Source: Verrucomicrobiota bacterium
Lineage (GTDB): Bacteria; Verrucomicrobiota; Verrucomicrobiia; Limisphaerales; SIBE01
DNA length: 49,016 nucleotides
Assembly: GCA_016871535.1 (NCBI GenBank)
Contig: VHCZ01000015.1
Location: 1 to 49,016, forward strand
Reading direction: 5' to 3'
The translations under genes and the position numbers were made by a program. The notes beneath the pieces were generated by a model. That model worked only from the letters and a program-made list of their open reading frames with translations. It was not told where the DNA came from and did not search any database. The first letter of the stretch is position 1. Each line of letters begins with the position of its first letter. This document shows positions 22,559 to 40,159 of this stretch, one piece after another.

Positions 22559-22655
22559 CGTTTCAAACCGATTGAGAAGTCGTAACTCAAAGCCGTAACC
22601 AAAACCGAACGGGTGGCAGCCGTTGCCGCCCGCTCGGCCCAATCATTTCCACGCC

Positions 22656-24413: not shown

Positions 24414-24768
24414 AGCATGCCGAACCGCAAGATTCCAGGAGCCGTAGCGCAGGTTTGCAACCTACAGTATCGCCGATCTGCAATCGGCCGGGCCTTTGAA
24501 TGCACGCATGTTCTCGACCGGCGAGGCGCCGGTTATTTGTTCCGTGTGTGGTCAGGATTCCCGCGCGTCAGACCGGACGACGCGTCCTTTCCCCTGGCCC
24601 TCTCCCCCAGGAGAGGGTTCGCCGGTCGCGATCTCAGCTTGATCCGGGAGCGTGGGCCCATTCCAGCGCAGGATAGAATGCTCCCTCTCCCCGGGGGAGA
24701 GGGCCGGGGTGGGCGGAAAGGGGACTCGGAACCACCCAGGAATTCAGAATTGTCGAAGGCGCGAAACT
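24414..24768. repeat. Repeat-filled gspE-gspF spacer
   Basis: The 355-bp gap contains a family-D type palindrome (GTAGCGCAGGTTTGCAACCTAC, then CCGATCTGCAATCGG), a fragment GACCGGCGAGGCGCCGGT shared with the gspJ/gspK repeats, and two copies of the CCCTCTCCC/GGGAGAGGG type (about 24590-24715). No gene is seen. Spacers this long are unexpected inside a secretion operon. Confidence 0.7.
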
Positions 24769-26004
24769 ATGCCGCTGTTTCAATATAGAGCCCTTCAGTC
24801 CGACGGCACGATTGCCGAAGGCCGAGTCGAGGCCGGCGGACGGCAGGAAGCCTTCCGCCAGATCGAAGGCCGCGGCTTGCGGCCCATCAGCCTGGCGGAG
24901 CGTGCCAACGGGAAGCCGGAAGCACAGATCGCTTCTACGGCCGCGCCCGGATTGTGGAAGTCGGGCAAAGTCACGGGACGAATGCTGGAGAATTTCACGC
25001 GCTTGCTCTCCAGCTTGCTGGCCGCGGGAGTGCCGCTCAGCCGCGCGCTCGTCATCCTCCACAAAGAAGCCACTGCGCCCGCGGCCAAAGAAAAATGGAA
25101 AGAAATCCACGACTTGGTGATCGATGGCATGTCGCTCGCCGACGCGATGGCCAAGTCGCCGGAGACCTTCCCGCGCGTTTATGTGGCGATGGTGCAAGCG
25201 GGCGAGACCGGCGGCTTTCTGGATTTGGTGCTGGCGCAGATCGCGGACTTTCAAGCGCGGGAGAAGGAATTGCGGGCAAAGGTCCTGACGGCGTTGCTTT
25301 ATCCGAGCATCCTGCTGGTGCTTGCGCTCGGCGTGCTGGTGTTTCTGCTTGTTTTCTTCATCCCGCGATTCCAGGCGATTTTCTCCGGGTTCGGCGCTGC
25401 GCTGCCGCTGCTCACGCAAGTCATCGTGACCATCAGCCACGTCGTGCGCGCCTACGGATTGTACGTTGCCCTCGGTCTGGGTTTGGGGGCGTATCTCGTG
25501 AGAACGTGGCTCACGTCCGAACAAGGGCGGCGCACGTGGGAACGCTGGATTTTGCAGGCGCCTGTCATCGGACCGTTGCTGGCGCAATTCGCCATGGCGC
25601 GTTTTTGCCGGATGCTCGGCACGTTGCTGGGCGCGGGCGTGCCGTTGATCAACGGGCTGAACGTGGCGCGCAAATCCATCGGCAACCAGATTCTCGTCGA
25701 TGCCGTTTCCAATTCCATCGAGCGCGTGAAGGAAGGCGATGCGCTGGGGCCGAGCCTTTCCGATTGCAAAGAGCTTTTCACCGGATCGGTCCTGGAAATG
25801 GTTTCCGTGGCCGAGGAAAGCGGGCGGCTGGACCAAGAGCTCGTGCGGTTGGCGAACGTGACCGAAGCGGATCTGGACCGGCAATTGAAGACGGCGGTCG
25901 CGTTCGCGGAACCGCTCATGCTGTTCTTCATCGCGGCTTTCATCGGGACCATCTTCATCGGCATGGTGATCCCGATCTTTACGATCCAAGATTACATTAA
26001 GTGA
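24769..26004 (+). CDS. gspF: Type II secretion inner-membrane protein GspF
   Basis: A 411-residue GspF/PilC-family platform protein starting MPLFQYRALQSDGTIAEGRV, the standard family N-terminus. Two copies of the T2SSF domain are visible: FTRLLSSLLAAGVPLSRAL near 75-95 and FCRMLGTLLGAGVPLINGL near 280-300. Each is followed by membrane helices (YPSILLVLALGVLVFLLVFF and the C-terminal PLMLFFIAAFIGTIFIGMV). It couples the ATPase to pseudopilin assembly. The frame is open upstream to 24652 through repeat sequence; the chosen ATG gives the family length. Confidence 0.95.
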   Translation: MPLFQYRALQSDGTIAEGRVEAGGRQEAFRQIEGRGLRPISLAERANGKPEAQIASTAAPGLWKSGKVTGRMLENFTRLLSSLLAAGVPLSRALVILHKEATAPAAKEKWKEIHDLVIDGMSLADAMAKSPETFPRVYVAMVQAGETGGFLDLVLAQIADFQAREKELRAKVLTALLYPSILLVLALGVLVFLLVFFIPRFQAIFSGFGAALPLLTQVIVTISHVVRAYGLYVALGLGLGAYLVRTWLTSEQGRRTWERWILQAPVIGPLLAQFAMARFCRMLGTLLGAGVPLINGLNVARKSIGNQILVDAVSNSIERVKEGDALGPSLSDCKELFTGSVLEMVSVAEESGRLDQELVRLANVTEADLDRQLKTAVAFAEPLMLFFIAAFIGTIFIGMVIPIFTIQDYIK

Positions 26005-26014
26005 GAAACAACGG

Positions 26015-26353
26015 ATGAGATTTATGAAACTGAACACGCAGAACAAGGATTTTGAATGGGCTTTCTGCAGGACAGCCCTCTATGCTAAGCCGTATCTATT
26101 CAGTCCGACGGCTCCGTTCCCCTCACCCCGGCCCTCTCCCCAGGGGAGAGGGAGAACATTTCCTGGCCCGTGGTTCAATTCACCATTCGAGGACCATTCC
26201 TGCGTTGGAAAAAATAGCTCCCTCTCCCTTGGGGAAAGGGAGAACACGGCGACATCGGCAGCAGGTCTTGAGGGGATCGAAGTTCCACGGCGTCCCAAGC
26301 GCAGTTCCCTCTCCCTGAGGGAGAGGGCCAGGGTGAGGGGGAACGGGACGTGC
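26015..26353. repeat. CCCTCTCCC-type repeats before gspG
   Basis: At least three copies of a hairpin with arms like CCCTCTCCCCAGGGGAGAGGG lie at about 26112-26341, joined by unrelated spacers. The reading frame of gspG stays open through all of them up to an ATG at 26015, 10 bp after the gspF stop. They may therefore be either untranslated spacer or part of a 135-residue prepilin leader. Confidence 0.65.
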
Positions 26354-26830
26354 ATGAACCCGGCCGCGCTCAATCAAACCCGGAACTCCCGAACTAACCG
26401 TCACTCTGTGCAACAGGGGTTTACTCTGGTGGAACTGCTGCTGGTGCTGGTGATTCTCGGCACGCTGGCGGCCATCGTGGTTCCCAAGTTCGCGGGGCGA
26501 ACCGAACAGGCGCGAATCACAGCCGCGCAAACGCAAATCGCCAACTTCGAAGTGGCCCTTAACGCCTTCGAGGTTGATAACGGCTATTATCCGAAAGGCA
26601 AAGACGGTCTGATGGACCTGGTTCAGGCGCCGAAGGACGCTCAGAATTGGCGCGGACCGTACCTCAAAGATATCCCCGTGGATCCGTGGAGAAATCCTTA
26701 CGTCTATGAGTGTCCGGGCCGGCACAACGAAGACAGCTTCGATATTGCGTCGGGCGGACCGGACGGCCGCACGGGCAACGAGGACGACATCACCAACTGG
26801 GATTCGCAGGGGCAGAATCGGAAACGCTAA
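26354..26830 (+). CDS. gspG: Major pseudopilin GspG
   Basis: The prepilin cleavage site QQG/FTLVELLLVLVILGTLAAIVVP has Glu at +5 and the usual hydrophobic helix. The mature part has the GspG hallmarks: DNGYYP, LKDIPVDPWRNPYVYECPG and a C-terminal GGPDGRTGNEDDITNWD calcium-binding segment. ATG 26354 gives a 22-residue leader. ATG 26015, close behind gspF, would give a 135-residue leader through repeats; both are in frame. It forms the shaft of the type II pseudopilus. Confidence 0.92.
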   Translation: MNPAALNQTRNSRTNRHSVQQGFTLVELLLVLVILGTLAAIVVPKFAGRTEQARITAAQTQIANFEVALNAFEVDNGYYPKGKDGLMDLVQAPKDAQNWRGPYLKDIPVDPWRNPYVYECPGRHNEDSFDIASGGPDGRTGNEDDITNWDSQGQNRKR

Positions 26831-26842
26831 GGCGAACGATCG

Positions 26843-27754
26843 ATGCGAGTGGATCGTACATTGCCGCCGAATGCAGCACGAATTCTGCGGTGTGGGTTGC
26901 ACGACAAGCAGCGACGCCAGACCGTAGCGCAGATTTGCAATCTGCTGTACCGCGGAATTGCATTCCGCAAGCGCCCGGCAAAGTCGGGCGTTCGGCAACT
27001 TGCCGGAGCCGCGCCGATTTCAAATCGGCGATACGGCAGAGTGCAACTCTGCGCTACGGCGCAGCGCGGTGGAGCCGCGCTCCAGCCAAATCGTCGCGGC
27101 TTACAATGTCGGGCGATACCGCAAGCTTGCAGATCGGCACGAGGGGGTGGACGGGGATTTACCCTGATCGAGTTCATTCTGGTCATGGCGTTGCTGGCGG
27201 TCGTGATCGCGATTGCCGCGCCCTCGCTTCCCAACTTCTTTCGCGGGCGCAAGCTGGAATCCGAAGCGCGACGCTTCGTGGCTCTGGCGCGCTACGGCCA
27301 AAGCCAGGCTGTCTCCGAGGGCGTTCCCATGATGTTGTGGATGGATCAGGTGGAGGGAACCTACGGTGTCCGCCAGCCAGACGGATTCAATCTGGACCCG
27401 CTGCAGCCGGATTCCGCGGCGCCGGCCCGGCAAGGCTATGAGAAAGGCGCTGCCACGCAACCGACCTTTCGCCTGGCACAGAATCTTCGCTTCGAACTGG
27501 AAGGCAGCGACAGCCGCACCAACGGGCGCGTGGTGACGATCCGTTTTCTGCCGGACGGTTCGATTGATGAAGCGGCCCTGCGCGTGCTGAAGCTTTTGCA
27601 GGAAGACCCTGAAAAACGGCGCGAACCGCACACGGTCTGGATCGCGCAGTCGTGGGACAACACTCGATATGAAATTGTGGATCAAACCAACGCGTGGCAA
27701 AGGCTCTCCCTGGAGACCAGTCTCGCGGGCCCGGGCCGGCTTTACGCTCGCTGA
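26843..27754 (+). CDS. gspH: GspH-like pseudopilin with a long repeat-bearing leader
   Basis: The prepilin helix GRG/FTLIEFILVMALLAVVIAIAAPSL marks the mature start at residue 106. The mature domain (about 197 residues) has the GspH-like ARRFVALARYGQSQAVSEG block and a beta-rich C-terminus. There is no ATG between 26843 and the cleavage site. ATG 26843 lies 12 bp after gspG, and the 105-residue leader runs in frame across a 138-bp palindrome cluster (26922-27059). GTG 27041 is an alternative with a 39-residue leader. The minor pseudopilin would cap the pseudopilus tip. The 3' end overlaps gspI by 86 bp. Confidence 0.8.
   Translation: MRVDRTLPPNAARILRCGLHDKQRRQTVAQICNLLYRGIAFRKRPAKSGVRQLAGAAPISNRRYGRVQLCATAQRGGAALQPNRRGLQCRAIPQACRSARGGGRGFTLIEFILVMALLAVVIAIAAPSLPNFFRGRKLESEARRFVALARYGQSQAVSEGVPMMLWMDQVEGTYGVRQPDGFNLDPLQPDSAAPARQGYEKGAATQPTFRLAQNLRFELEGSDSRTNGRVVTIRFLPDGSIDEAALRVLKLLQEDPEKRREPHTVWIAQSWDNTRYEIVDQTNAWQRLSLETSLAGPGRLYAR
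26922..27059. repeat. Palindromic repeat family D cluster in the gspH leader
   Basis: Outer arms CCGTAGCGCAGA and TCTGCGCTACGG enclose a chain of small hairpins: GCAGATTTGCAATCTGC, GCGGAATTGCATTCCGC, CGCCCGGCAAAGTCGGGCG, CGGCAACTTGCCG and GCCGATTTCAAATCGGC. The cluster is 138 bp by eye, 46 codons, and leaves the gspH frame open. Confidence 0.8.
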
Positions 27755-28085
27755 AGTCCTGGCGGCGCTGGTGATCATGGCGATTGTCATTCCGGCCGCG
27801 GTCGAGGGTTTGCGCATCGCGAACCGCGCGGGCGTGGTGGCCCAGCGGAAAGGCGTGGCGACGCAGTTGGCCGACAGTTTGCTCAATGAACTGATTGTGA
27901 CGAAAAACTGGTACAATTCTGCGCAAAGCGGAACCTTCAGCCCGGAGTGGCCGGGATACCGCTGGCGCGTGCAAAGCGAGCCTTGGGGCCGCGAAACGAT
28001 GCGGCTGGTTTCGGTCGAGGTCACTTACGAAGTGCAAAACAAAGAATATCGGGTCGTGCTGAGCACCCTGGCGCCGCCGCTGTGA
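27669..28085 (+). CDS. gspI: Minor pseudopilin GspI
   Basis: A 138-residue pseudopilin. A 24-residue leader ends RARAG/FTLAEVLAALVIMAIVIPA, with Glu at +5. The mature part contains NRAGVVAQRKGVATQLADSLLNELI, typical of GspI. ATG 27669 lies inside the 3' end of gspH, so the genes overlap by 86 bp. This is the only pseudopilin in the operon with a normal short leader and no repeat. It begins inside coding sequence, where a repeat would have disturbed gspH. Confidence 0.9.
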   Translation: MKLWIKPTRGKGSPWRPVSRARAGFTLAEVLAALVIMAIVIPAAVEGLRIANRAGVVAQRKGVATQLADSLLNELIVTKNWYNSAQSGTFSPEWPGYRWRVQSEPWGRETMRLVSVEVTYEVQNKEYRVVLSTLAPPL

Positions 28086-29218
28086 ATGTGACACGGGGAA
28101 GTCAACAATGCAGGGGAGCACACGCGCCCTCGCGTGTTCCGACCGGGGCCTCGCCGGTCGGAATGAACGCGTCGATCGATGCCTTGATGATGACCTGTTC
28201 GAGCGAAACACGGTGGTCGGCGAGGGCGCCGACTGCAGCACGCGGGGCGCGTGCGCTCCCCCGAAACGCTTTCACCCTGCTGGAATTGCTCCTGGCTGTC
28301 GCCGTGTTTTCCGTCGTGATCCTGGCGATCAATGTTGTTTTCTTCAGCGGGCTGCGTTTGCGCGCGGCGACTTCGCGGATCGTGGAGGATTCCATTCCAG
28401 TGAACCGCGCCGTTTCTGTGATCAAGAACGACCTGCGCTCGGTGCTTCCGCCGGGAGGGACGCTGGCCAGGACGTTCACCGGCGGCATCCAGAGCAGCAT
28501 GTTCAACAACACGATGCTGAGCCAGGGCGGGGTCGATTCCAGTTCCGGTCTGCAATTCTGCACCACAACCGGTGTCACGGATGACTCGAACTTCGTTCTG
28601 TTCAATCAGACACAAATCGAACCCTGGCCGGAGATCCAGAAGGTGTCGTACTATCTGCGGAACCCTCTTTACTCGACCAACCAATGGGGCAAGGAACTCG
28701 TGCGCGCGGTCACGCGCAATCTTTTGCCCGTGATGGAAGATATGCCGGTCGAACAGCCGCTGCTCGACGGCGTGGAGCGGATCGAATTCCTGTTCTACGA
28801 CGGTCTGTCGTGGTTGTACACGTGGGACCTTGCCACAATGCAGACGTCCTTCCAAACGACCGAGGGCCAGAGTCAAACCAACGCATTGCCGCAAGCGGTC
28901 AAAATCCTGATCGAATTCGCCGCCGTGGGCCGCGATGAGCGTCTGCGCAAACCGCCGATTCAATTGGTCGTGCCCATCGTGGCGGAAGCGCGAACCAACC
29001 AACTCGCGTCCGCCAGCACGAACAGTTCGGCGCAAGTTACAAGCCGCGGGAATACAACGCCGGGCGGCAATCAGAACACGAGCGGCGGCAATCAGAACAC
29101 GAGCGGCGGCAATCAGAACACCGGGCGCGGCGGTGCAACCACGCCCCCGGCTTCCAACCCTTCTTCCGGCGGTCAGCGCGGAGGAAGCGGCGGCGGCGGA
29201 CGAGGAGGTGGGCGGTGA
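28082..29218 (+). CDS. gspJ: Minor pseudopilin GspJ with repeat-bearing leader and Asn/Gly-rich tail
   Basis: GTG 28082 overlaps the gspI stop (GTGA), a typical coupled start. The leader of about 63 residues crosses a 149-bp palindromic element (28113-28261) and ends RNA/FTLLELLLAVAVFSVVILAI, with Ala rather than Gly at -1. ATG 28163 or 28190 within the leader are alternatives. The mature domain matches GspJ (NRAVSVIKNDLRSVL, VERIEFLFYDG, LPQAVKILIEF). The C-terminus is a low-complexity tail with GGNQNTS repeats and a Gly-rich end, which is not usual for GspJ. It is part of the pseudopilus tip complex. Confidence 0.85.
   Translation: MNVTRGSQQCRGAHAPSRVPTGASPVGMNASIDALMMTCSSETRWSARAPTAARGARALPRNAFTLLELLLAVAVFSVVILAINVVFFSGLRLRAATSRIVEDSIPVNRAVSVIKNDLRSVLPPGGTLARTFTGGIQSSMFNNTMLSQGGVDSSSGLQFCTTTGVTDDSNFVLFNQTQIEPWPEIQKVSYYLRNPLYSTNQWGKELVRAVTRNLLPVMEDMPVEQPLLDGVERIEFLFYDGLSWLYTWDLATMQTSFQTTEGQSQTNALPQAVKILIEFAAVGRDERLRKPPIQLVVPIVAEARTNQLASASTNSSAQVTSRGNTTPGGNQNTSGGNQNTSGGNQNTGRGGATTPPASNPSSGGQRGGSGGGGRGGGR
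28113..28261 (+). repeat. Palindromic repeat family G, copy in gspJ leader
   Basis: Arms GGGGAGCACACGCGCCCTCG and GCGGGGCGCGTGCGCTCCCC enclose a second pair around CCGACCGGGGCCTCGCCGG and GGTCGGCGAGGGCGCCGAC and a centre of about 50 bp. It aligns along its whole length with the reverse complement of 29250-29399. Confidence 0.82.
29063..29122 (+). repeat. 21-bp tandem repeat in gspJ
   Basis: Three copies of GGCGGCAATCAGAACACGAG plus C, the last one diverging at its end, encode GGNQNTS repeats in the GspJ tail. Being a multiple of three, copy-number change keeps the frame. Confidence 0.85.
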
Positions 29219-30741
29219 AAACCGTTCGTTGTTTCCGTCCGCTTCAATTGGGGAGCGCACGCGCCCTCGCGTGCAGTGGTCGGCGCCCTCGCCGGCCTCT
29301 GAGTTTCCTCCGAAGAAGCCATCGCTACGAGACCGCCCGACGTGTGGGTTTCGACCGGCGAGGCGCCGGTCGGGACACGCGAGGGCGCGTGTGCTCCCCA
29401 ATGTCGCCCGAACACGCCTCAGTTCTCATCATCGTGCTCTGGATCACGTTCGGGTTGGTGAGCACGGCGCTCTACTTCGGCCATTCCATGCTGTTTGAAT
29501 TCCGCGCGTCGGACAATCACACCGCGGGCGTCGAAGCTGAGCAAGCGATCGAAGGCGCGGCCCGGTATGTGGCCTACGCTCTGACTAACCTCACCCAGCC
29601 GGGCCAGTTCCCGGAACTCCAATGGTACGACGTCGAGAACGTGCCCGTAGGCGAATCCCTTTACTGGCTGATCGGGCGCACCAACGTGTCCATGCAACTA
29701 GACCGGAACGAAACCCCGCGCTTCGGATTGATCGATGAAGCCTCCAAGTTGAACCTCAACACGGCGACGCTGGAGATGCTTCAGAACCTCCCGCGCATGA
29801 CACCGCAACTGGCGGCCGCGATCATCGATTGGCGCGACGAAGACACCAACCCTTCGCAGGACGGCGCGGAGACGGAAACTTACTCGCGCCTCAATCCGCC
29901 TTACCAGAGCAAGAACGCGCGATTCGAATCGATCGAGGAACTGCGGCTCCTGTTCGGCGCGGACCCGGAAATTCTTTACGGCGAGGACTACAACCGGAAC
30001 GGGATTCTCGACCCGAACGAGAACGACGGCGACTTGTCGTGGCCCGTGGATAACCGCGACGGCAAGCTGGATCCGGGAATTCTGGAATTTGTCACGATCT
30101 TCAGCCTGGAAGCAAACACGCGCACCAACGGCTCGCCGCGCGTGAATGTCAGCGGCGGCGGGACGAACCTCGCCGAATTGCTCCAGGAAAAGTTCGACCA
30201 GGCCCGCGTGAATGCAATTCAGCAGCGCGTCGCGAGCGCGACCAATCGGAGCGTGCTCGAATTTTTCCTGCGCAGCGGGATGACGGCAGAGGAGTTTGCC
30301 GAGATCGAAGGCGACCTGACCACGACCAACGCCGCGGTGATCGAAGGACTGATCAACGTGAACACAGCGCCCGTCGAGGTGCTGGCTTGTGTCCCGGGCA
30401 TCGGCTGGGATAAGGCGCAACAAGTCGTGGACTACCGGCAATCTCAGAGCGCCGTTTTGACCAGCCTGGCGTGGGTCGCCGAGATCCTGGACCAGGCGAG
30501 CGCAATTCAGGCCGGGCCTTACCTGACGTCCCGGAGCTACCAGTTCACCGCCGACATCGCGGCGGTGGGCCACCACGGACGCGGCTATCGGCGGACGGCG
30601 TTTGTGTTCGATACCAGCGAAGGCGCTCCGAAAATCATCTACCGCCGCGATCTGGGCCGGCTGGGTTGGGCGCTCGGCCCGCTCGTGCGGCAGGAACTGG
30701 CGCAAGCGAAAGAGACCGGAATTACCACGAGAATGCGATGA
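29215..30741 (+). CDS. gspK: GspK-like minor pseudopilin with repeat-bearing leader
   Basis: GTG 29215 overlaps the gspJ stop (GTGA). The frame then crosses a 150-bp palindromic element (29250-29399) before the helix HASVLIIVLWITFGLVSTALYF; ATG 29401 directly after the element is an alternative. The mature protein is GspK-like: LNLNTATLEMLQNLP and LINVNTAPVEVLACVPGI are the helix-hairpin-helix segments of the SAM-like domain. DYNRNGILDPNEND and DNRDGKLDPG look like EF-hand-type calcium loops. GspK caps the pseudopilus tip with I and J and limits its length. Confidence 0.87.
   Translation: MKTVRCFRPLQLGSARALACSGRRPRRPLSFLRRSHRYETARRVGFDRRGAGRDTRGRVCSPMSPEHASVLIIVLWITFGLVSTALYFGHSMLFEFRASDNHTAGVEAEQAIEGAARYVAYALTNLTQPGQFPELQWYDVENVPVGESLYWLIGRTNVSMQLDRNETPRFGLIDEASKLNLNTATLEMLQNLPRMTPQLAAAIIDWRDEDTNPSQDGAETETYSRLNPPYQSKNARFESIEELRLLFGADPEILYGEDYNRNGILDPNENDGDLSWPVDNRDGKLDPGILEFVTIFSLEANTRTNGSPRVNVSGGGTNLAELLQEKFDQARVNAIQQRVASATNRSVLEFFLRSGMTAEEFAEIEGDLTTTNAAVIEGLINVNTAPVEVLACVPGIGWDKAQQVVDYRQSQSAVLTSLAWVAEILDQASAIQAGPYLTSRSYQFTADIAAVGHHGRGYRRTAFVFDTSEGAPKIIYRRDLGRLGWALGPLVRQELAQAKETGITTRMR
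29250..29399 (-). repeat. Palindromic repeat family G, copy in gspK leader
   Basis: A 150-bp copy of the element at 28113-28261 in the opposite orientation, with arms GGGGAGCGCACGCGCCCTCG and CGAGGGCGCGTGTGCTCCCC. It occupies exactly 50 codons between the coupled GTG start and an ATG. Confidence 0.82.
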
Positions 30742-30751
30742 AACGAATCCG

Positions 30752-32191
30752 ATGATTTCCCTCACTAAAAACAAACCGCCCTCTGCGTTGATGGGGTTGA
30801 CGCTCGACAAGAGCCGGATCGAGGGCGTGGTGCTGCGCCGGCTCAATGGAGCCGTTCAAGTGCACCGATCCTTTCAAACTTCGCTTTCGCTGGACCCGCT
30901 GACGAACGATCCCGAATTGGTCGGGCGCGAAATCCGCAATCATTTGAATGAGGCCGGCGTGCGCGTGAAGCCGTGCGCGGTCTCCGTGCCGTTGAACTGG
31001 GCGCTGACTTTGCAGACCAAGATCCCGGCCATTCCCGAAGCGGACGTCGCGGACTTTCTCACCATCGAAGCGGAAAAGGGATTTCCGTACGCGCCCGAAG
31101 ATTTGTTCATCTCGATTTCACGATTTCGCGCTCCGAACGGGGATCAATACGCGACGATCGTGGCCATACCGCGGAATCACCTGACGCTTCTGGAGCGGGC
31201 GCTGCGGGCCGCGCAACTCAAGCCGCTGAGTTTTTCTTTGGGCATCTCCGCATTGCAGGACCTCGGCAAAGATCCCGCCTTCGGCTTGCTCGCGCTCGTG
31301 GTGGGCGAAAGTAGCGTTGAACTCCAGGTGTCCTCCGGTGGCGGCGTCGCGGCACTGCGCTCGCTGGAAGGCGCCATTGAAGCCAACGGTTTCGAACGCG
31401 ACATCGACGCCGACCTCATCGCGCGGGAAATCAAGATCACCCTGGGGCAATTGCCCAGGGAACTGCGCGAGACCGTGCGCAAAATCAAGGTGTTCGGCCG
31501 CCCCGAACTGGCGCAGCGCCTGGTGAAGGAACTTCAGGAGCGTCTGGACACCATGGGCCTGGAGATTGGCCTGGGCACCGCCCAGCCCGTGAATGGATTT
31601 CCGGTGCCGGTCACTTCTGACAAGGGTCTCTCCCCCGCGCTCGGCATGGCGGCCCGATACATCGTGGGCAAGCCGGGCGGATTCGAATTTCTGCCGCCCC
31701 GGGTGAGTCCGTGGACGCAGTTCACCGCGCGTTTTGCCTCGCGGAAGATGGTGTCGTGGGGCGCGCTGGCGGGCGCGACCGTGGTTTTGATCGCCGGAAC
31801 CTTCCTGTGGCAGCAGGTCCGGTTGTCCGGCCTGGAGTCGCGCTGGAAAGCGATTCAACCTCAAGTGACGGAGCTCGAAGATTTGCAGCAACGCATCCGA
31901 AAGTTCCGCCCGTGGTTCGACAACACCGCGCGCACGCTCGTCATCGTGCGCAAGCTGACGGAAGCGTTTCCGCTCGACGGCGCGGTTACCGCGAAAACGG
32001 TGGAGATCAAAGACCTTTCCACAGTCTCCTGTTCCGGCCAGGCCAAGGACCGCGAATCGTTGTTGAAAGTGCTCGAACGGTTGCGCGGCGCCAAAGAAGT
32101 GGCAGACCTGAAGCTGGGCCAGATCCGCGGGAATTCGCCGTTGCAGTTTTCCTTCGACTTGCGCTGGCGGGAAGGATCTCATGAAAATTAG
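30752..32191 (+). CDS. gspL: GspL-like (PilM/PilN-type) assembly protein
   Basis: A 479-residue protein starting MISLTKNKPPSALMGLTLDK. The N-terminal 330 residues have the actin-like PilM/GspL pattern (GLTLDKSRIEGVVL, AVSVPLNWALT, EAEKGFPYAPED, LLALVVGESSVELQV). A single membrane helix (MVSWGALAGATVVLIAGTFLWQQ) follows near 375-400. After it come a coiled-coil segment and a ferredoxin-like periplasmic domain, as in GspL/PilN. It should link the GspE ATPase to GspM and the outer complex. It begins 10 bp after gspK and overlaps gspM by 11 bp. Confidence 0.85.
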   Translation: MISLTKNKPPSALMGLTLDKSRIEGVVLRRLNGAVQVHRSFQTSLSLDPLTNDPELVGREIRNHLNEAGVRVKPCAVSVPLNWALTLQTKIPAIPEADVADFLTIEAEKGFPYAPEDLFISISRFRAPNGDQYATIVAIPRNHLTLLERALRAAQLKPLSFSLGISALQDLGKDPAFGLLALVVGESSVELQVSSGGGVAALRSLEGAIEANGFERDIDADLIAREIKITLGQLPRELRETVRKIKVFGRPELAQRLVKELQERLDTMGLEIGLGTAQPVNGFPVPVTSDKGLSPALGMAARYIVGKPGGFEFLPPRVSPWTQFTARFASRKMVSWGALAGATVVLIAGTFLWQQVRLSGLESRWKAIQPQVTELEDLQQRIRKFRPWFDNTARTLVIVRKLTEAFPLDGAVTAKTVEIKDLSTVSCSGQAKDRESLLKVLERLRGAKEVADLKLGQIRGNSPLQFSFDLRWREGSHEN

Positions 32192-32726
32192 GAACCGCGA
32201 AAAACTTCTGACGATCGGCGCCATTGCCGCCGTGGCCATTCTGGCCGGGGACCGGCTCGTTTACCCCCCGCTGGTGCGGACCTGGAATGACAAGAACACT
32301 CGGATCACGGAGTTGAATCGCTCCATCAACAAAGGCGAAGGTTTGCTCCGAAGCGAACGCTCCATCCGCGAGCGCTGGGACGATATGAAGAAACGCTCGC
32401 TGCCGGCCGATGTATCCAAAGCGGAAAACGACGTGCTTCAGGCGGTCGTCCGCTGGCAGCAGGAAAGCCAGATCGGGTTGACCTCCATCAAGCCGCAGTG
32501 GAAACGGACCGACGAAGATTTTGCGACGCTGGAATGCCGGGCCGATGCGGGCGGCGCCGCCGGCGGCAGCATCGAAGCAGTGTCGCGTTTTCTTTACGAA
32601 CTCGAAAAAGATCCCCTGGCGCTGAAGATCGAGGGCGTGGAAATCACGTCGCGCGATACCGCCGGCCAGCAAATCTCCGTCGCGGTCCGGTTCAGCGGAT
32701 TGCAGCTTGCCCGGGAGGAACGATGA
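32181..32726 (+). CDS. GspM/PilO-like protein
   Basis: A 181-residue bitopic protein: short cytoplasmic start MKIRNREKL, membrane helix LLTIGAIAAVAILAGDRLVY, coiled coil (NKNTRITELNRSINKGEGLL in outline) and a C-terminal ferredoxin-like domain. This is the layout of GspM and PilO. It overlaps the L gene by 11 bp and the next gene by ATGA. It is expected to pair with GspL in the inner-membrane platform. Confidence 0.78.
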   Translation: MKIRNREKLLTIGAIAAVAILAGDRLVYPPLVRTWNDKNTRITELNRSINKGEGLLRSERSIRERWDDMKKRSLPADVSKAENDVLQAVVRWQQESQIGLTSIKPQWKRTDEDFATLECRADAGGAAGGSIEAVSRFLYELEKDPLALKIEGVEITSRDTAGQQISVAVRFSGLQLAREER

Positions 32727-33838
32727 AAGCGGCGCTTTTCAAAATGAACCTGGCAGAGATCGCAACCCGAGTGGCGTGTTCTCTCACGCGCGGACCGCAG
32801 CCTTTAGGCTGCTTCCGCGCGCTCTCCGCAGTCGAGCGTCGAAGCGGCCTAAAGGCCGCGGTCCGGAAGAATGGTTCATGCGAAGCTTCCTGTTCCTTAC
32901 GAACCTGCCCAAGGCCCACGAACCGAAAACCGCGCGGACCTCAACCTTTAGGCTGCTTCCGCGCGCAATTTGGAGTTCGGCGTGGAAGCGGCCTGAAGGC
33001 CGCGGCCCGAGGAGTTGGTTCATGGGAAGACACCCGCGCGGCCATTCTGTGCGCTCTCTTGTGCGTGCTGCTTTCTTGCATGATCCCCACGGCGTTCGGC
33101 GCCAATGAATCCACGAATGCGCCTGCGAGCACGGACGCGCCACGCTCCGAACCCGCATTGGTGGCGGGCGAATCCACCAACGCGCCTTCACTTCAGGGCT
33201 TCGCGGAATTCAAGATCGTTGCGGAGCGGAATATCTTCAACGCCAACCGGCGTCCGGGCACAGCCAATCGGCCACCTAGAACCGAACGCCCGCCCAGAAC
33301 CGAAGCGTTCTCTCTGGTCGGCACCTTCCTCTACGAAGACGGCAACTTTGCCTTTTTCGCCGGGACGGAATCGGGCTACAATAAAGTGTTGAAAGAAGGC
33401 GAGACGATTGGCGACTGCGAGATCACGAGCATCACGCAAGATTCGGTCAAACTGCTGAGCGGCGAGATGGAGATTGATCTGCCGCTGGGGCTTCAGATGA
33501 AGCGGCCAGAAGGAGGCAGATGGGAACTGGTTGTTGGCGCGGTCGCCTCGACCTCAGCAGCTCCTTCAACTTCGACATCGGCATCGGGAGGACGCGATCG
33601 GGGCTTCGGTTCCGATAACCGGCGGGATCGTGGTGGGTTCGGCTCGGACCTGCGGCGTCCGGGTGGAGACACTCGACGGGATCGCAGTTTCTGGGGGCGC
33701 GAACGCAGCGCGCCTTCCGCACCAGTCACGGAGGCGGCGCCGGAATCGAAACCGGCCGAGGCACCAGGCAATCCAGGTCCTGCGGACGACATTCTACAAA
33801 AACTGATGCAAAAACGGGAACAGGAGTTAAACAAATGA
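32723..33838 (+). CDS. GspC/PilP-like protein with in-frame palindromic repeats before its signal peptide
   Basis: ATG 32723 overlaps the M stop (ATGA). After MKAALFKMNLAEIATR the frame crosses two 75-bp palindromic modules and a linker (32791-33009). It then reaches the hydrophobic export segment AAILCALLCVLLSCMIPTAF, which has no suitable start codon of its own. The mature part contains FKIVAERNIFNANRRP and a small beta domain (FSLVGTFLYEDGNFAFFAGT), matching the HR domain of GspC or PilP. It ends in a Gly/Arg/Pro-rich tail. It should contact the secretin, encoded immediately downstream with another ATGA overlap. The in-frame repeats are best supported here. Confidence 0.75.
   Translation: MKAALFKMNLAEIATRVACSLTRGPQPLGCFRALSAVERRSGLKAAVRKNGSCEASCSLRTCPRPTNRKPRGPQPLGCFRAQFGVRRGSGLKAAARGVGSWEDTRAAILCALLCVLLSCMIPTAFGANESTNAPASTDAPRSEPALVAGESTNAPSLQGFAEFKIVAERNIFNANRRPGTANRPPRTERPPRTEAFSLVGTFLYEDGNFAFFAGTESGYNKVLKEGETIGDCEITSITQDSVKLLSGEMEIDLPLGLQMKRPEGGRWELVVGAVASTSAAPSTSTSASGGRDRGFGSDNRRDRGGFGSDLRRPGGDTRRDRSFWGRERSAPSAPVTEAAPESKPAEAPGNPGPADDILQKLMQKREQELNK
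32791..33009. repeat. Cassette-like palindromic array 2 inside a coding leader
   Basis: Two module-i copies (32791-32865 and 32935-33009, 75 bp each) with arms CAGCCTTTAGGCTGCTTCC and GAAGCGGCCTAAAGGCCGCG are joined by a linker starting GGTTCATGCGAAGCTTCC and ending CACGAACC. GGTTCATGGGAAG follows at 33017. The same module is at 12074-12148 and 45557-45629. Confidence 0.8.
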
Positions 33839-35547
33839 AAACCTCGAAGATTCGTGCAGCGGTCCTGACCCTTGCGGCAGGAGCATTCATCGCTTTCGCT
33901 CAAGAAACGGCGCCGCCTGCCCAAACCCCGGCGCCGCCCGCGGCAGCCCAGGAGCAGCCGGCGGCGGCAGACAAGCCTGCCGGAGACAAGGCAGCAGCGG
34001 CTCCGGCAAACGCCGCGGCTCCAGCCGAGAAACCCGCAACCACGCCAGCCAACGGCAACGCGGCAAACGGGAATGGCATTCGGCTCAATTTCCGCGGCGC
34101 GCCGTTGGAAGAGGTTTTGAATTACCTGAGCAAAGCCGCCGGCTTCATCATCGTTCCGGAGACCGACGTGAAGGGCAAAGTGGATGTCTGGAGCGGCCAG
34201 CCCTTGACCAAGGACGAGGCCTACGACCTGCTCAACACGATCCTCAAGAAAAATGGCATGGCCGCGCTGCGCAATGGCCGGACCTTGACCATCGTCAGCC
34301 TGGAAGAAGCGCGCAAACGCGACATCCCGGTTGTCCAAGGCAGAGAGCCCGAAGAGATTCCCAAGACGGATCAGATGGTCACGCAGGTGATTCCGATTCG
34401 TTACGCGGACGCCACGCAGATGACGCGAGACCTGCAGCCGCTGCTCCGGGATTACGCGACTTTGACCGCCAACCAGAGCGGCAACGCGCTGGTGCTCACC
34501 GCGACGCAAACCGATGTCAAACGAATGGTTGAAATCGTCAAAGCGCTCGACACTTCAATCTCCAGCATTTCCGGGATTCGCGTTTTCCAACTCCAGTACG
34601 CGGACGCGAAAGACCTGGCGAATGTGATCAAGGAATTGTTCGACACGTCGGCCACGCAGAGAAATCAAGGCCGGGGCGGCGCGGTGGGGGATCGGATCCA
34701 GCAACTCTTCAACACAGTCGGGGGGTTCGGGGGCGCTTTTGGCGGCGGGCCAGGCGACCGCGGCGGCGGCCCGGGCGGATTCGGCGGGCGCGCTGGAGGC
34801 GCGGGCGGCGCAAGCGAGGCGCGGCAGGCTGCTTCCAGAGTCGTGGCCGTGGCCGATGAGCGCACCAACTCCCTCGTGGTCAGTGCGCCTGACGAGTACC
34901 TGCCGACGATCGAACAAATGATCAAGCAGATCGACATCGTCATGGACGACCTCACCGTGCTGCGCGTGTTCCGTCTGAAGAACGCCGACCCGACTTATAT
35001 GGCCCAGCAATTGGGGGCGCTGTTTCCGGATGAGACCCGCAGCCAGAATAATCAATTCGGCCGGGGCGGATTTCAGTTCCTGGGAGGCGGACCCTTTGGA
35101 GGAGGCCGGGGCGGATTTGGCGGCCGGGGCGGCGCAGCCAGCACGGCCAATCAGAGCGAACGCATGAAGAAGCTGGGCCGTGTTCTCTCGGTCCCGGACG
35201 CGCGCACCAGCTCCCTCATCGTCAGCGCGTCGGCGGAACTCATGCCGCAAATCGCCCAGATGATCGAAGAACTCGACGCCGATCCGGCTCGGAAAGAGAA
35301 GGTGTTCGTTTTCTCGGTTGAGAACGCGAACATCCAGGACGTGGAAGAGCTCCTGAGCGACATGTTTCTCGGAAACAACAGTCAGTTGTCCAGCCGGAGG
35401 CGGACCCAGCAGCAGAATAACAACGCCTTGAACAATCGGCAGTTTAACACCACGCGGAATCTTGGAACGGGCGGCAACTTCGGCGGCGGACGCGGGGGGA
35501 CCGGAGGCGGTTTGCCCACCTTCGGCAGCGGCAACTTCGGGCCTTAG
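33835..35547 (+). CDS. Secretin N-domain protein (split GspD, part 1)
   Basis: A 570-residue exported protein: signal peptide 1-22, Ala/Pro-rich linker to about 78, then an N0/STN-like domain (IRLNFRGAPLEEVLNYLSKA). Three NolW-type N domains follow at about 183-240, 247-368 and 374-481 (each ending in a V-V-A-T-VK-M/I-LD pattern). A fourth begins at FVFSVENANIQDVEELLSDM (491-510) and stops in a Gly-rich tail. Long Gly-rich loops interrupt N domains 2 and 3. There is no beta-barrel secretin domain. The barrel is encoded separately at 35615. It overlaps the C-like gene by ATGA. It should form the periplasmic gate ring of the type II channel. Confidence 0.87.
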   Translation: MKTSKIRAAVLTLAAGAFIAFAQETAPPAQTPAPPAAAQEQPAAADKPAGDKAAAAPANAAAPAEKPATTPANGNAANGNGIRLNFRGAPLEEVLNYLSKAAGFIIVPETDVKGKVDVWSGQPLTKDEAYDLLNTILKKNGMAALRNGRTLTIVSLEEARKRDIPVVQGREPEEIPKTDQMVTQVIPIRYADATQMTRDLQPLLRDYATLTANQSGNALVLTATQTDVKRMVEIVKALDTSISSISGIRVFQLQYADAKDLANVIKELFDTSATQRNQGRGGAVGDRIQQLFNTVGGFGGAFGGGPGDRGGGPGGFGGRAGGAGGASEARQAASRVVAVADERTNSLVVSAPDEYLPTIEQMIKQIDIVMDDLTVLRVFRLKNADPTYMAQQLGALFPDETRSQNNQFGRGGFQFLGGGPFGGGRGGFGGRGGAASTANQSERMKKLGRVLSVPDARTSSLIVSASAELMPQIAQMIEELDADPARKEKVFVFSVENANIQDVEELLSDMFLGNNSQLSSRRRTQQQNNNALNNRQFNTTRNLGTGGNFGGGRGGTGGGLPTFGSGNFGP

Positions 35548-35614
35548 TCCGTCGATATCGTCCGGTGGCTCTGAGTTTGAAATCTGAAATCCGAAATCTG
35601 AAGTGGATCAGCCT

Positions 35615-36841
35615 ATGACATTCATGACGACAATACGTTTCTGGCACTTCTGCCTGGCTCTGGCCCTTGCACTGGGCTGCGCGCTGGATGCCTTCGCCCA
35701 ATTTGGCGGCGGCGGCTTTGGGGGTGGCGGCTTCGGCGGCGGCGGCGGGTTTGGCGGCGGCGGCGCCCTCGGGCGTGGCACGCTTCCTCAGTATCCCGCC
35801 GGCGGCCAGATCGGTTCCGCAATGTTTTCCTCCGACCCCGAATCCAGGAAACTGGTCGTCCGAACCGACGAGGATACGGCGAAGTACATCAGCATGGTCA
35901 TTTCCAACCTGGACCGCCCCAAACCGCAGGTCCTCATCAAGGTCGTTTTTATGGAAGTGTCCTACACGAAAGGATCCGATATCGGCGTGGAAGGATCGTT
36001 GGTCAAAAAGTTCGGAGGCGGAGGCTCCAGCAGCACGGGCATCGTCAATCAGGTGTTCGGGAGCGGGCTTTTGTCTCAGGCGCCCAGCGCGCTGGCGCCG
36101 GGAGCCGGCCTCTATACTGTTCTCGGCAATGATTTCCAGGCGACCTTGCGCGCCATTGCTCAAGCCGGAAAAACAGAAATCCTTTCGCGGCCGTCCATTC
36201 TCGCCCGCAACAACCAGCAAGCGACCATCAGCATCGGCCAACAAGTTCCATTGATCACCGGCACGCAAATCAGCGCGCTGGGGACCCAGAGCAGCAGTGT
36301 TTCCTACGCCAATGTCGGGATCATTCTCCAGGTGACGCCGTTCATCACGTCGGACGGGCTGGTGGAAATGATCGTCTCGCCACAGACCTCGGAACTGGCG
36401 GACCGGGCGCAGTGGGTTGCGACCGGGAACGGCGTCAGCGCGCCGGTCATCAATTCGCGCTCGGCGGACACCGTCGTCGTGGTTCCCGACGGCCAGCCGG
36501 TGGTCATCGGCGGCATGATGAAAAATCAGAAGCTTCAATCGGACAGCAAGATTCCGATTCTGGGCGACATCCCGCTGTTGGGCGCGGCCTTCAAACGAAA
36601 GATCACGGACAACGTCAAGACCGAGCTGTTGATTTTCCTGACGCCGCACATCGTCCGCGATCCGGTCGAACTTGCGCAAATGACGCAGAAGGAAAGAGGC
36701 GATCAGGAAATGGTCCCGAAATCCTTTTCGGAGCAAGAACTGGATAAGTTCCTGGACGGCGTGCCGGTCAAAGATCCGTCCACGATTGGCCTGCCGCCGC
36801 CGGAGCCGGCCAAACCGAAGCCGAATTCGAAGCGAAGGTAG
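35615..36841 (+). CDS. Secretin barrel protein (split GspD, part 2)
   Basis: A 408-residue exported protein with its own signal peptide (FWHFCLALALALGCALDAFA). A Gly-rich segment is followed by SRKLVVRTDEDTAKYISMVI, the second half of an N domain. Then comes the secretin family core: PQVLIKVVFMEVSYTKG, LSRPSILARNNQQATISIGQ, VPLITG, VGIILQVTPFI, and the signature VIGGMMKNQKLQSDSKIPIL leading to LGDIPLLGAAFK and ELLIFLTPHIV. It forms the outer-membrane pore. ATG 35615 is chosen over GTG 35603. It lies 67 bp after part 1, behind a GAAATCTGAAATCCGAAATC repeat. Confidence 0.9.
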   Translation: MTFMTTIRFWHFCLALALALGCALDAFAQFGGGGFGGGGFGGGGGFGGGGALGRGTLPQYPAGGQIGSAMFSSDPESRKLVVRTDEDTAKYISMVISNLDRPKPQVLIKVVFMEVSYTKGSDIGVEGSLVKKFGGGGSSSTGIVNQVFGSGLLSQAPSALAPGAGLYTVLGNDFQATLRAIAQAGKTEILSRPSILARNNQQATISIGQQVPLITGTQISALGTQSSSVSYANVGIILQVTPFITSDGLVEMIVSPQTSELADRAQWVATGNGVSAPVINSRSADTVVVVPDGQPVVIGGMMKNQKLQSDSKIPILGDIPLLGAAFKRKITDNVKTELLIFLTPHIVRDPVELAQMTQKERGDQEMVPKSFSEQELDKFLDGVPVKDPSTIGLPPPEPAKPKPNSKRR

Positions 36842-37071: not shown

Positions 37072-38655
37072 ATGATCAGCCGGACCTCCCTCATTTATGC
37101 GCTGCTCGCCGCGGTCTGGGGAATCGTGATCGGCTGGCAGACCCTGGAGCATCAGCGAGTCAAGGAATCCAAGCGCACGGCCTTGCTGAACCGCCCGGTG
37201 GCTACGGCCAAAACGCTGGGCAAAGTCATCCAGTCGATCGCGTGGGACATGAAGTCGGGCCGCCTGGTCGCAAAGGAACGGTTGGAAACGGCGCTCAAAG
37301 GCCTCGTGACTGATGGCGAGCTAAGTTCGATTGCCCTCTTGAATGCCGCCGGAGAACAGGTCGTCGCCGCGGGCGCGCCGGTTGATCTCGATTCCATCGA
37401 CGGGTTGCTCCCGGGCGAATACTGGGGCGCTCGAACCCTGACCGTGGTCCGGCGCGTCGATCTGGACGCAAACAACGCGTCGGCCGGAGAAACGAATCGC
37501 CCGGCGATCGTCGTGCCATCAGCGCCCCCCAGATTCGGCTCGCCGCGGGACTGGACTCGATCCGGTGATGGCGGAACGAATTCCTCGGCCGTTCGCCCCG
37601 CGAACGCCTCGACGGGCAACCTGACGAACGCGACTGGCGACGTCAGTAATGCTTCGACAGCCAGTCTTGCCGGAAGCCAGCCTGGCAGTTCTTCAATCCG
37701 GATTCAAAACGATCGTTCTCCCGACCCTGGGCAGGGCGATGGCCGCCGGCGCAGAGGACCTCCGCCTTTCGTCATCAGCGAAGAGGAACGCATGTCGCGC
37801 GGACTTCACGACGTCGTCATCGCGATGTCCACGGAGTCGTTCCGGCAAGCGTGCATCCAGGATCTCTGGCTGCGGCTCGTCATTGGACTGTTCGCGGGTG
37901 TCTCGGTCGCGGGACTTGCCTTCGCCTGGCGCAACACGCAGAAATCTTCCGATTTGCAAATGCGGCTTCTGCGCGCCAGCGAGTTGAACTCGCATCTGAG
38001 GCAAATGAACGTCGCCGCGGCCGGTCTGGCGCACGAAACCCGCAATCCGCTCAACATCATCCGCGGCGTGGCGCAGATGATTTCCCGGGATGCCAGCACG
38101 TCGCAGGAAATCCGGAAGAAAACCTCCGAGATCACGGACGAGGTCGATCGGGTGACCGCGCAACTGAACGAATTCATCAATTACTCCAGGCCGCGCGACA
38201 TTCGCCGAGCGCACGTGGTCCTGAACGCCGTCGTGGCGGACGTGGCGCGCGCTTTGCAGAGCGATCTGGAGGACAAATCGATTCGGTTGAGCCGGACGGA
38301 GGAGCATCTGACCGTGGAAGCGGACGAGCAATTCCTCCGGCAGGTCCTTTTCAATCTGCTGCTCAACGCAGTCCAGGCTGTGGACAAGAACGGGGAAATT
38401 CAGATCGTGGCCAAGAAAACCAGCCCCTCCGAGGCTTGCCTGGAAGTGCGCGACAACGGTCCAGGCGTCCCCCCGGAACAGCGCAAGGAAATATTCAAAC
38501 CCTACTTCACGACGCATCAAAAGGGGACCGGGCTAGGTCTGGCGGTGGTGCAACAGATCGTCCTGGCGCACGGCTGGGAAATCGAGTGCCTGTCGAACGA
38601 CAGCCAGGGAGCGGTTTTCAGCATCAGCCGCATGCAACTGGCCGCGAAGGCGTAA
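37072..38655 (+). CDS. Membrane sensor histidine kinase
   Basis: A 527-residue kinase. Two membrane helices (about 5-22 and 267-286) enclose a periplasmic region of about 240 residues, whose distal part is low-complexity Asn/Ser/Thr-rich. The H-box AAAGLAHETRNPLNIIRGV carries phospho-acceptor His321. The ATPase shows the N-box FNLLLNAVQAV, G1 DNGPGVPPE and G2 GTGLGLAVVQ. It lacks a PAS domain. The NtrC-type regulator follows 130 bp later, so the pair forms a two-component system of AtoSC/ZraSR type. Because it lies just behind the secretion operon it may control it, but no target site was identified. Confidence 0.92.
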   Translation: MISRTSLIYALLAAVWGIVIGWQTLEHQRVKESKRTALLNRPVATAKTLGKVIQSIAWDMKSGRLVAKERLETALKGLVTDGELSSIALLNAAGEQVVAAGAPVDLDSIDGLLPGEYWGARTLTVVRRVDLDANNASAGETNRPAIVVPSAPPRFGSPRDWTRSGDGGTNSSAVRPANASTGNLTNATGDVSNASTASLAGSQPGSSSIRIQNDRSPDPGQGDGRRRRGPPPFVISEEERMSRGLHDVVIAMSTESFRQACIQDLWLRLVIGLFAGVSVAGLAFAWRNTQKSSDLQMRLLRASELNSHLRQMNVAAAGLAHETRNPLNIIRGVAQMISRDASTSQEIRKKTSEITDEVDRVTAQLNEFINYSRPRDIRRAHVVLNAVVADVARALQSDLEDKSIRLSRTEEHLTVEADEQFLRQVLFNLLLNAVQAVDKNGEIQIVAKKTSPSEACLEVRDNGPGVPPEQRKEIFKPYFTTHQKGTGLGLAVVQQIVLAHGWEIECLSNDSQGAVFSISRMQLAAKA

Positions 38656-38785
38656 ATCCCCCTCGTGCGCAAGAGCCGCATTACCTGCGTTGCCTGGTTA
38701 ACTCATGTAATGCCCTGACGACTTTCATTGCGGCTTTTGGACGCACGGGTAAATTCTCCAGCAAAACGCGAAGCCGCTGCGCCCC

Positions 38786-40159
38786 ATGCCGACGAAAGCT
38801 CACTCGCCTTCCCCGAAACCGCCGAAGATTCTGATCGTCGATGACGACGCGGGCCAGCGGAGCTTGTTGGACTCGTTCCTGAGGCGCCAGGGCTTTGAAA
38901 CGGTCATCGCCTCTTCCGGAGAACAAGCGCTGGAAATTCTGAAGGGCGAAGGCATTCAAATGATGATCTCCGACGTGCGGATGCCCGGAATGACCGGCCT
39001 GGCAACATTGCGGGAGGCGCGGCGCCAGCACTCCGTGCTCCCGGTCTTGCTCATCACGGCGTTTCCCGACATTCGCGACGCGGTGGGTGCAATGCGCGAC
39101 GGCGCGGTGAATTATCTGGAAAAACCGATTGACCTGGATGAATTGCTGTCCGCCGTGCGCAAGGCCATCGGAATCCAGGAGCAAACAGCACCCGCGTACG
39201 GGCAAGACAAGCCGCTCCCGCCTTATGTCGTGGCCAAGAGCCCGCTCATGGAAAACGTCTTTCGGGACGTCTCGCTGGTCGCGCCCTCGGACAGCCGGAT
39301 CCTGATCACCGGCGAGAGCGGCGTGGGCAAGGAGATCGTGGCCGGCGTGATCCACCAGTGGAGCGGCCGCGCGGCCGGACCGCTGGTCATCGTGAATTGC
39401 GCCGCCATTCCCGAGACGCTGTTGGAAAGCGAGTTGTTCGGCCACGAGAAAGGCGCGTTCACAGGCGCCACCAATCCGAGAGTGGGCCGTTTCGAGGAGG
39501 CCAACGGCGGCACCATTTTTCTGGATGAAATCACCGAGATGTCGCCGCCGCTTCAGGCCAAACTCTTGCGCGTGACGCAGGATGGCAGCTTCCAGCGCCT
39601 CGGCTCGAACAAGGAACGGCAAACCAACGCGCGACTCCTCGCCGCGACCAATCGCAATCTCGAAGAGGTCGTGAAGAAGGGAAGTTTCCGGGAGGATTTG
39701 TACTATCGGCTGAACGTCATGGAGATTTCCGTTCCACCGCTGCGGGAACGGACCGAAGACATCGTGCCTCTGGCCGGATTTTTCGTCGAACAATTCTCCA
39801 AACGCAAAGCGCGCTTCTCGGCCGCAGTGATCGCCATCCTGGAAAGCTATCAATGGCCGGGCAACGTGCGCGAGCTCCGCAACGCGATGGAACGCGCCAC
39901 GCTTCTCTCGCACGGGGAATTGATCCTGCCCGAACATTTGCCCGGCCGCATTCGCCAGGCCACCCAGAGCGAAAAGCCCCCTGAAACGACGCCGGCCAGC
40001 CGGCTGGAAGACATCGAACGCCAGGCCATTTTGCAGGTCTTGCGGGAAACCCACTTCAACCGCACGGAGGCCGCCAAGGTCCTCGGCATCAGCCGCCGCG
40101 CGCTGACCTACAAACTCCAGCACATGCGCGAGCAAGGCTACGCAGTGGATGCGCGCTAG
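38786..40159 (+). CDS. Sigma-54-dependent response regulator (NtrC family)
   Basis: A 457-residue regulator. The receiver domain has acidic pocket VDDD near 18-21, phospho-acceptor Asp63 (ISDVRMPG) and K113 (EKP). The AAA+ domain has Walker A GESGVGKE at 176-183 and the sigma-54-contacting loop GAFTGA at 223-228, with Walker B IFLDEI. The Fis-type helix-turn-helix near 415-450 reads FNRTEAAKVLGISRRALTYK. It activates sigma-54 promoters when phosphorylated by the neighbouring kinase. No -24/-12 promoter could be assigned confidently in this window. Confidence 0.95.
   Translation: MPTKAHSPSPKPPKILIVDDDAGQRSLLDSFLRRQGFETVIASSGEQALEILKGEGIQMMISDVRMPGMTGLATLREARRQHSVLPVLLITAFPDIRDAVGAMRDGAVNYLEKPIDLDELLSAVRKAIGIQEQTAPAYGQDKPLPPYVVAKSPLMENVFRDVSLVAPSDSRILITGESGVGKEIVAGVIHQWSGRAAGPLVIVNCAAIPETLLESELFGHEKGAFTGATNPRVGRFEEANGGTIFLDEITEMSPPLQAKLLRVTQDGSFQRLGSNKERQTNARLLAATNRNLEEVVKKGSFREDLYYRLNVMEISVPPLRERTEDIVPLAGFFVEQFSKRKARFSAAVIAILESYQWPGNVRELRNAMERATLLSHGELILPEHLPGRIRQATQSEKPPETTPASRLEDIERQAILQVLRETHFNRTEAAKVLGISRRALTYKLQHMREQGYAVDAR

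What the first reader, a model, noticed from the sequence alone, without database searches (positions are those of the whole stretch)
33835..36841. GspD secretin split into two exported proteins within one N domain
Part 1 ends with the first half of a fourth N domain (FVFSVENANIQDVEELLSDM) and a Gly-rich tail. Part 2 has its own signal peptide, a Gly-rich start, then the matching second half (SRKLVVRTDEDTAKYISM) and the full secretin barrel. Other N domains here have Gly-rich loops at the same position, so the split lies in such a loop. The two chains could complement each other to rebuild the domain.
Basis: partly seen in the sequence, partly recalled or inferred. Interest (0 to 1): 0.7.

Follow-up and report, generated by a model that had tools for sequence, protein, structure and literature searches.

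The report
Secretin gene split inside one domain
In this group of soil and water bacteria the outer-membrane pore protein of the type II secretion machine is always made as two (sometimes three) separately exported pieces that are cut through the middle of one small domain, so the pieces probably have to fold together to rebuild the pore, which is a conserved departure from the textbook one-chain pore.

Summary
The window holds a complete T2SS operon (gspE-F-G-H-I-J-K-L-M-C-D1-D2). gspD is two genes: D1 (N0, three whole N domains and the beta1-alpha1 half of a fourth) and D2 (own signal peptide, Gly-rich stretch, beta2-beta3-alpha2 half, secretin barrel). All 177 orthologous loci examined, from about 93 genera, ~50 families and several classes of Verrucomicrobiota, are split at this point. 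The 69 other secretins fetched from other lineages are single chains. A tree needs one change between the states. Five loci (three independent events) carry a second split, in another N domain, at the same alpha1-beta2 loop and again with a new signal peptide. Put side by side, the window's halves match the whole Secretin_N profile; apart they do not. Across the two chains the halves co-vary as strongly as the halves of an intact N domain. The own genome holds no intact replacement gspD. Best reading: an obligate multi-chain GspD whose last N domain (canonical N3) is rebuilt by fold complementation between chains; physical association is inferred, not shown. Split secretins are known (rhizobial T3SS, mitochondrial T2SS); a clade-wide, within-domain, repeated split in a bacterial T2SS is a new variant.

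The parts
33835..35547 (+). gspD part 1 (D1), 570 aa, exported: N0, N1, N2, N3 and first half of a fourth Secretin_N domain
   Evidence: signal peptide MKTSKIRAAVLTLAAGAFIAFA read directly from sequence
34084..34278 (+). N0 domain (PF21305)
   Evidence: AlphaFold model
34375..34548 (+). first whole Secretin_N domain (N1)
34573..34932 (+). second whole Secretin_N domain (N2) with long Gly-rich alpha1-beta2 loop; the homologous loop is broken in the three-part relatives
34954..35280 (+). third whole Secretin_N domain with Gly-rich loop
35299..35367 (+). half-domain N4a (beta1-alpha1: KVFVFSVENANIQDVEELLSDMF), equivalent to the first half of canonical N3
35368..35544 (+). low-complexity Asn/Gln/Gly-rich tail of D1
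   Evidence: sequence
35428..35439 (+). LxxR motif inside the disordered tail; the Arg column is Arg in all 178 aligned sequences and Leu is 90% (HMM alignment); LxxR found in 162/177 tails, about 45 in shuffled tails
35548..35614 (+). 67-nt intergenic stretch between D1 and D2, containing a genome-dispersed GAAATCYGAAATC repeat
35615..36841 (+). gspD part 2 (D2), 408 aa: second half-domain plus secretin barrel
35615..35698 (+). signal peptide of D2 (...DAFA|Q); A|Q site conserved (A 93%, Q 97%)
35699..35809 (+). Gly-rich linker of D2 with conserved Tyr (92%)
35810..35914 (+). half-domain N4b (beta2-beta3-alpha2: IGSAMFSSDPESRKLVVRTDEDTAKYISMVISNLD)
36152..36658 (+). secretin domain (PF00263), complete 1-169/169
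22623..33838 (+). rest of the T2SS operon: gspE, F, G, H, I, J, K, L (PilM-like), M, C
   Evidence: (gspG passes its curated cut-off; the others match below cut-off but in the expected order)
37072..40159 (+). histidine kinase and sigma-54 response regulator directly downstream

Best explanation
gspD of this T2SS underwent one ancient gene fission in the long flexible alpha1-beta2 loop of its last N domain (the canonical N3, next to the barrel), before the sampled Verrucomicrobiota classes diverged. D2 gained its own signal peptide. D1 and D2 are each exported by Sec. In the periplasm the beta1-alpha1 half at the end of D1 packs on the beta2-beta3-alpha2 half at the start of D2 and rebuilds the N3 domain. 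That non-covalent joint carries the D1 rings (N0 to the third N domain, which bind GspC) on the D2 barrel in the outer membrane. In three lineages a second fission in the N2 loop gave three chains. Shown: the split, its conservation, the position, the signal peptides, the half-domain identities and the covariation. Inferred: that the halves meet and form a stoichiometric ring, and that the channel works.
For: Split in 177/177 orthologous loci, 69/69 other secretins fused; one change on the tree. Joined halves match PF03958 1-69/69 at 30.4 bits (cut-off 28.2); D1 tail alone gives no hit, D2 head alone 17.6 bits at 25-69. Second-split halves meet at the same profile position (2-26 and 25-67; joined 53.3 bits), in three independent lineages. 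Covariation N4a-N4b equals intact N3a-N3b (couplings z>4: 8 vs 8) and exceeds mismatched blocks (2 and 2; Fisher p about 0.01-0.02). Half-domain columns are conserved between low-complexity flanks. D2 carries a signal-peptide-like start in 158 of 164 scored loci by a crude rule. Single-chain relatives have a low-complexity loop, median 32 residues, at the split point. Model of D1: intact N domains are beta-alpha-loop-beta-beta-alpha, the last half has only the helix, beta1 not formed, pLDDT about 64; model of D2 starts with beta2-beta3-alpha2 and matches GspD structures. No replacement gspD in the own genome.
Against: No two-chain model or experiment. The covariation is modest (effective number of sequences 115), pairs are not independent, and phylogeny inflates all blocks (mismatched blocks serve as control). 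Block patterns of N3 and N4 do not correlate position by position (Spearman 0.04). The window's own halves join with a weak profile score. Expression and stoichiometry are unknown.
Confidence: 0.78

Rival explanations
1. The two chains work as separate modules: D2 alone forms the outer-membrane barrel and D1 forms periplasmic rings held by other partners (GspC, peptidoglycan, neighbouring rings); the half-domains are leftovers or bind something else.
For: Mitochondrial GspD works as a bare barrel without N domains (PMC8134430). The Gly-rich tails could be simple spacers. D2 alone is predicted as a complete secretin C domain.
Against: Both half-domains stay conserved in sequence across 177 loci while their flanks are low-complexity, and they co-vary across chains. 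New splits keep both halves too.
Confidence: 0.15
2. The halves pair, but between neighbouring protomers of the ring (domain swap), so the split changes ring connectivity rather than simply rebuilding the ancestral protomer.
For: Sequence and covariation cannot tell intra- from inter-protomer pairing; long flexible tails would allow it.
Against: No positive evidence; simple complementation needs fewer assumptions.
Confidence: 0.1
3. Sequencing error, decayed gene, or programmed frameshift joining the two ORFs.
For: Two adjacent ORFs of one family is the usual look of a frameshift.
Against: Present in 177 of 177 loci from ~93 genera; intergenic gap median 32 nt and up to ~800 nt; frame offset evenly 66/56/55; D2 has a conserved signal peptide with an A|Q site.
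Confidence: 0.01

Closest known systems
Mitochondrial T2SS GspD with GspDN1-3 (heteroloboseans, jakobids and others; PMC8134430, PMC10128026)
   Same: GspD divided over several proteins; the paper states that GspDN2 and GspDN3 correspond to the C- and N-terminal halves of one N domain.
   Different: Eukaryotic genes, highly diverged, N0 missing, barrel truncated, correspondence of halves to a given N domain unknown. Here: bacterial operon, adjacent genes, N0 kept, halves of the same identified domain, signal peptides.
Rhizobial / P. syringae T3SS-2 split secretin RhcC1 (NolW) + RhcC2 (PMC3574062, PMC3973906)
   Same: A secretin encoded in two exported parts, conserved in a clade.
   Different: Tested on pNGR234a: NolW holds a whole N0 and a whole N1, and the annotated secretin beside ttsI (taken as RhcC2) has its own CpaC-type N terminus and BON domain plus the barrel, so the break is between domains and the parts look unlike two halves of one SctC. 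Genes lie apart; T3SS, not T2SS.
Canonical GspD (PulD, XcpQ, EpsD; PDB 6hcg, 5wln, 5wq7, 5wq8)
   Same: D1 aligns to N0-N2 and D2 to the second half of N3 onward; fold matches; T2SS operon.
   Different: Single polypeptide there; two or three here, with one more N domain in many members.
TadB/TadC from fission of an inner-membrane platform gene (PMC6668835)
   Same: Gene fission of a conserved component within the same superfamily of machines.
   Different: Fission between two repeated domains, and of a different component.

Membership tests
T2SS secretin GspD | GspD N0 domain | tested here: met
   PF21305 45.5 bits, cut-off 27, in D1
T2SS secretin GspD | Repeated Secretin_N domains, the last next to the barrel | tested here: met
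   three whole ones in D1; the last only when D1 and D2 halves are joined
T2SS secretin GspD | Secretin barrel domain | tested here: met
   PF00263 1-169/169, 164.4 bits, in D2; Foldseek top hits are GspD structures
T2SS secretin GspD | One polypeptide passing the TIGR02517 cut-off (351 bits) | tested here: not met
   D1 204.9 and D2 234.8 bits; each covers its own part of the model. Filed as a GspD encoded by a pair of genes, not as a one-chain GspD
T2SS secretin GspD | Encoded in a T2SS operon | tested here: met
   gspE to gspC directly upstream; several minor parts score below curated cut-offs
T2SS secretin GspD | Forms an outer-membrane multimer that secretes | not testable with these tools
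   needs biochemistry
Rhizobial-type split secretin (RhcC1/RhcC2) | Break between whole domains | tested here: not met
   break is inside a Secretin_N domain versus whole domains in NolW
Mitochondrial split GspD (GspDN2/GspDN3 type) | Separate chains carrying halves of an N domain | tested here: met
   works alike in this respect; not a member, since this is a bacterial operon with signal peptides and N0 (description)

The most novel reading that the evidence does not exclude
A clade of bacteria has an obligate hetero-oligomeric secretin whose rings are held to the barrel only by fold complementation inside an N domain; repeated fission at N-domain loops (two, then three chains) shows that these rings are a modular, non-covalently stacked assembly, perhaps allowing the barrel to be placed in the outer membrane first and the periplasmic rings to dock later, with the invariant LxxR motif in the D1 tail as a docking element.
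Probability: 0.4. Interest if true: 0.75.

Novelty: new variant of a known kind. Interest (0 to 1): 0.62.

Why it matters
Secretins are taken to be rings of one kind of chain running from N0 to the barrel. A whole bacterial lineage that always cuts the chain through the N domain next to the barrel shows that covalent continuity is not needed. It gives natural split constructs for studying how the N rings assemble on the barrel, and a bacterial parallel to the puzzling split GspD of mitochondria. It also means that annotation pipelines will call two partial gspD genes (neither part passes the GspD equivalog cut-off) and may score these T2SSs as broken.

Tried and rejected
Natural fusions: long open frames (765-1320 aa) in four genomes looked like one-gene forms, but part 1 lies in another frame and they are spurious read-through. 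An alignment of unpaired D1 tails with D2 placed the tails on the wrong half and was not used. Position-by-position correlation of the N3 and N4 coupling maps was null. One-piece HMM search of the rebuilt domain in single-chain secretins gave split hits because of the long loop, then handled as two half hits. L083 and L265 look three-part but may be a frameshift and an assembly gap (N run), so they are not counted among the five clean three-part loci. Two pNGR234a stretches did not hold the T3SS. Literature: no paper in the held library describes a split bacterial GspD; subscription journals are mostly missing.

Full report
Observation. The two ORFs are at the stated coordinates. D1 (33835-35547) holds N0 and three Secretin_N stretches; D2 (ATG 35615 to 36841) holds the whole secretin domain and only positions 25-69 of a Secretin_N. 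TIGR02517 (GspD) is covered 1-267 by D1 and 280-600 by D2. Against solved structures D1 aligns to N0-N2 of GspD and D2 from inside N3 onward (for example 5wq7 residues 280-624). By the usual naming the broken domain is therefore N3, with one extra N domain before it in this lineage. The operon upstream reads gspE-F-G-H-I-J-K-L-M-C (gspG passes its curated cut-off, the others score below theirs but stand in the expected order).

Conservation. Searches of the order, class and phylum and of named GTDB contigs gave loci whose flanks were fetched. In all 177 loci with an orthologous barrel, part 1 is a separate upstream gene on the same strand. They come from about 93 genera and some 50 families, including four families outside the class; a few named loci are the same contigs as fetched ones. 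Median gap from the D1 stop to the first D2 ATG is 32 nt; the frame offset is spread evenly (66/56/55), which excludes frameshifting. Apparent one-gene forms were spurious open frames. In contrast all 69 further secretins from Planctomycetota, Pseudomonadota, Nitrospirota, Omnitrophota and others are single chains. On a tree of the barrel region split and fused are separated by one branch (support 94, FastTree).

Where the split lies. Secretin N domains fold beta-alpha-beta-beta-alpha (PMC12114550). The D1 model shows intact N domains with a long low-confidence Gly-rich loop between alpha1 and beta2. The last element of D1 is alpha1 alone, with beta1 not formed and low confidence. The D2 model begins with beta2-beta3-alpha2 and matches GspD structures. 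Mean confidence of both models is moderate (62.9 and 71.6). In single-chain secretins the same loop is low-complexity with median length 32, for example in the Sedimentisphaerales protein L148, the nearest fused relative. Joined, the window halves reach the full Secretin_N profile above the gathering score; alone they do not.

Repetition. L043 and L067 (one genus), L094, and L125 and L272 (one family) carry gspD in three pieces. The extra break is in the N2 domain, at the same loop, and the middle piece again starts with a signal peptide and a Gly-rich stretch. Joined halves score 51-64 bits and the break falls at profile position 25/26, as in the main split. The tree requires three separate events.

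Do the halves meet? Mean-field direct coupling analysis on 177 paired loci (effective number 115) compared an intact domain (N3a-N3b, one chain), the split domain (N4a-N4b, two chains) and mismatched pairs. Couplings with z>4: 8, 8, and 2 and 2. Among the top 60 pairs: 12, 12, 3 and 5. Fisher p is about 0.01-0.02, with the caution that pairs are not independent and relatedness is only controlled through the mismatched blocks. Some strong pairs fall where beta1-beta3 and alpha1-alpha2 contacts are expected (for example V17-V30 in the split domain, Y16-I31 in the intact one); this was seen after the fact. A direct two-chain prediction could not be made with the tools.

Unexpected detail. In the disordered tail of D1, about 20 residues after alpha1, the column of an Arg is invariant in 178 aligned sequences with Leu three before it in 90% (LxxR in 162/177 tails versus about 45 after shuffling). 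The D2 head has a Tyr at 92%. These are not explained by a passive linker and may be docking or gating elements.

Own genome. Of six secretins, only this one is orthologous; the others are a giant (3112-aa open frame) and paralogues. The D1 sequence has no other close match. The genome is 96.8% complete in 460 contigs, so a missed copy is possible but would not explain the conservation.

Compared with the known. The rhizobial split secretin breaks between domains. The mitochondrial GspD is dispersed over several proteins, two of which are halves of an N domain; this is the nearest parallel in form. No description of a split bacterial GspD was found in the held open library. Verdict: a real, ancient, clade-wide split GspD; new variant of a known kind. 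Complementation is the best-supported mechanism but physically unproven.

Noticed in passing
G000:C36:2605-11559 (own genome), L151, L153, L156, L157, L162, L166: Giant secretins with 10 to 20 or more tandem N domains in one chain (open frames of 2300-5155 aa) in this order and in Planctomycetota.
   Followed up: partly
window 35428-35439 and part-1 tails of 177 loci: Invariant Arg in an LxxR motif inside an otherwise low-complexity C-terminal tail of D1; function unknown.
   Followed up: partly
window 35579-35598, 10328-10354: Short repeat GAAATC[CT]GAAATCCGAAATC, dispersed: 23 sites in the own genome, none for the backwards control pattern; one copy sits in the D1-D2 gap.
   Followed up: partly
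L109 4204-4971, L248 2765-3536, L064 4554-4866, L250, L282: Longer gaps (about 180-810 nt) between D1 and D2 in a few genomes, possibly with an inserted gene.
   Followed up: no
L053, L056, L078, L079, L081 and about 20 more: Part 1 has one N domain fewer (the canonical number); N-domain count varies within the order.
   Followed up: no
L286:21670-23097 (pNGR234a): The annotated secretin next to ttsI (taken as RhcC2) has a CpaC-type N terminus with BON domain, so it looks like a Tad-type secretin rather than the C-terminal half of SctC.
   Followed up: partly
window 37072-40159: Histidine kinase and sigma-54 response regulator lie directly behind gspD; a similar reading frame lies behind D2 in several related loci (e.g. 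L009, L012, L030, L032).
   Followed up: no
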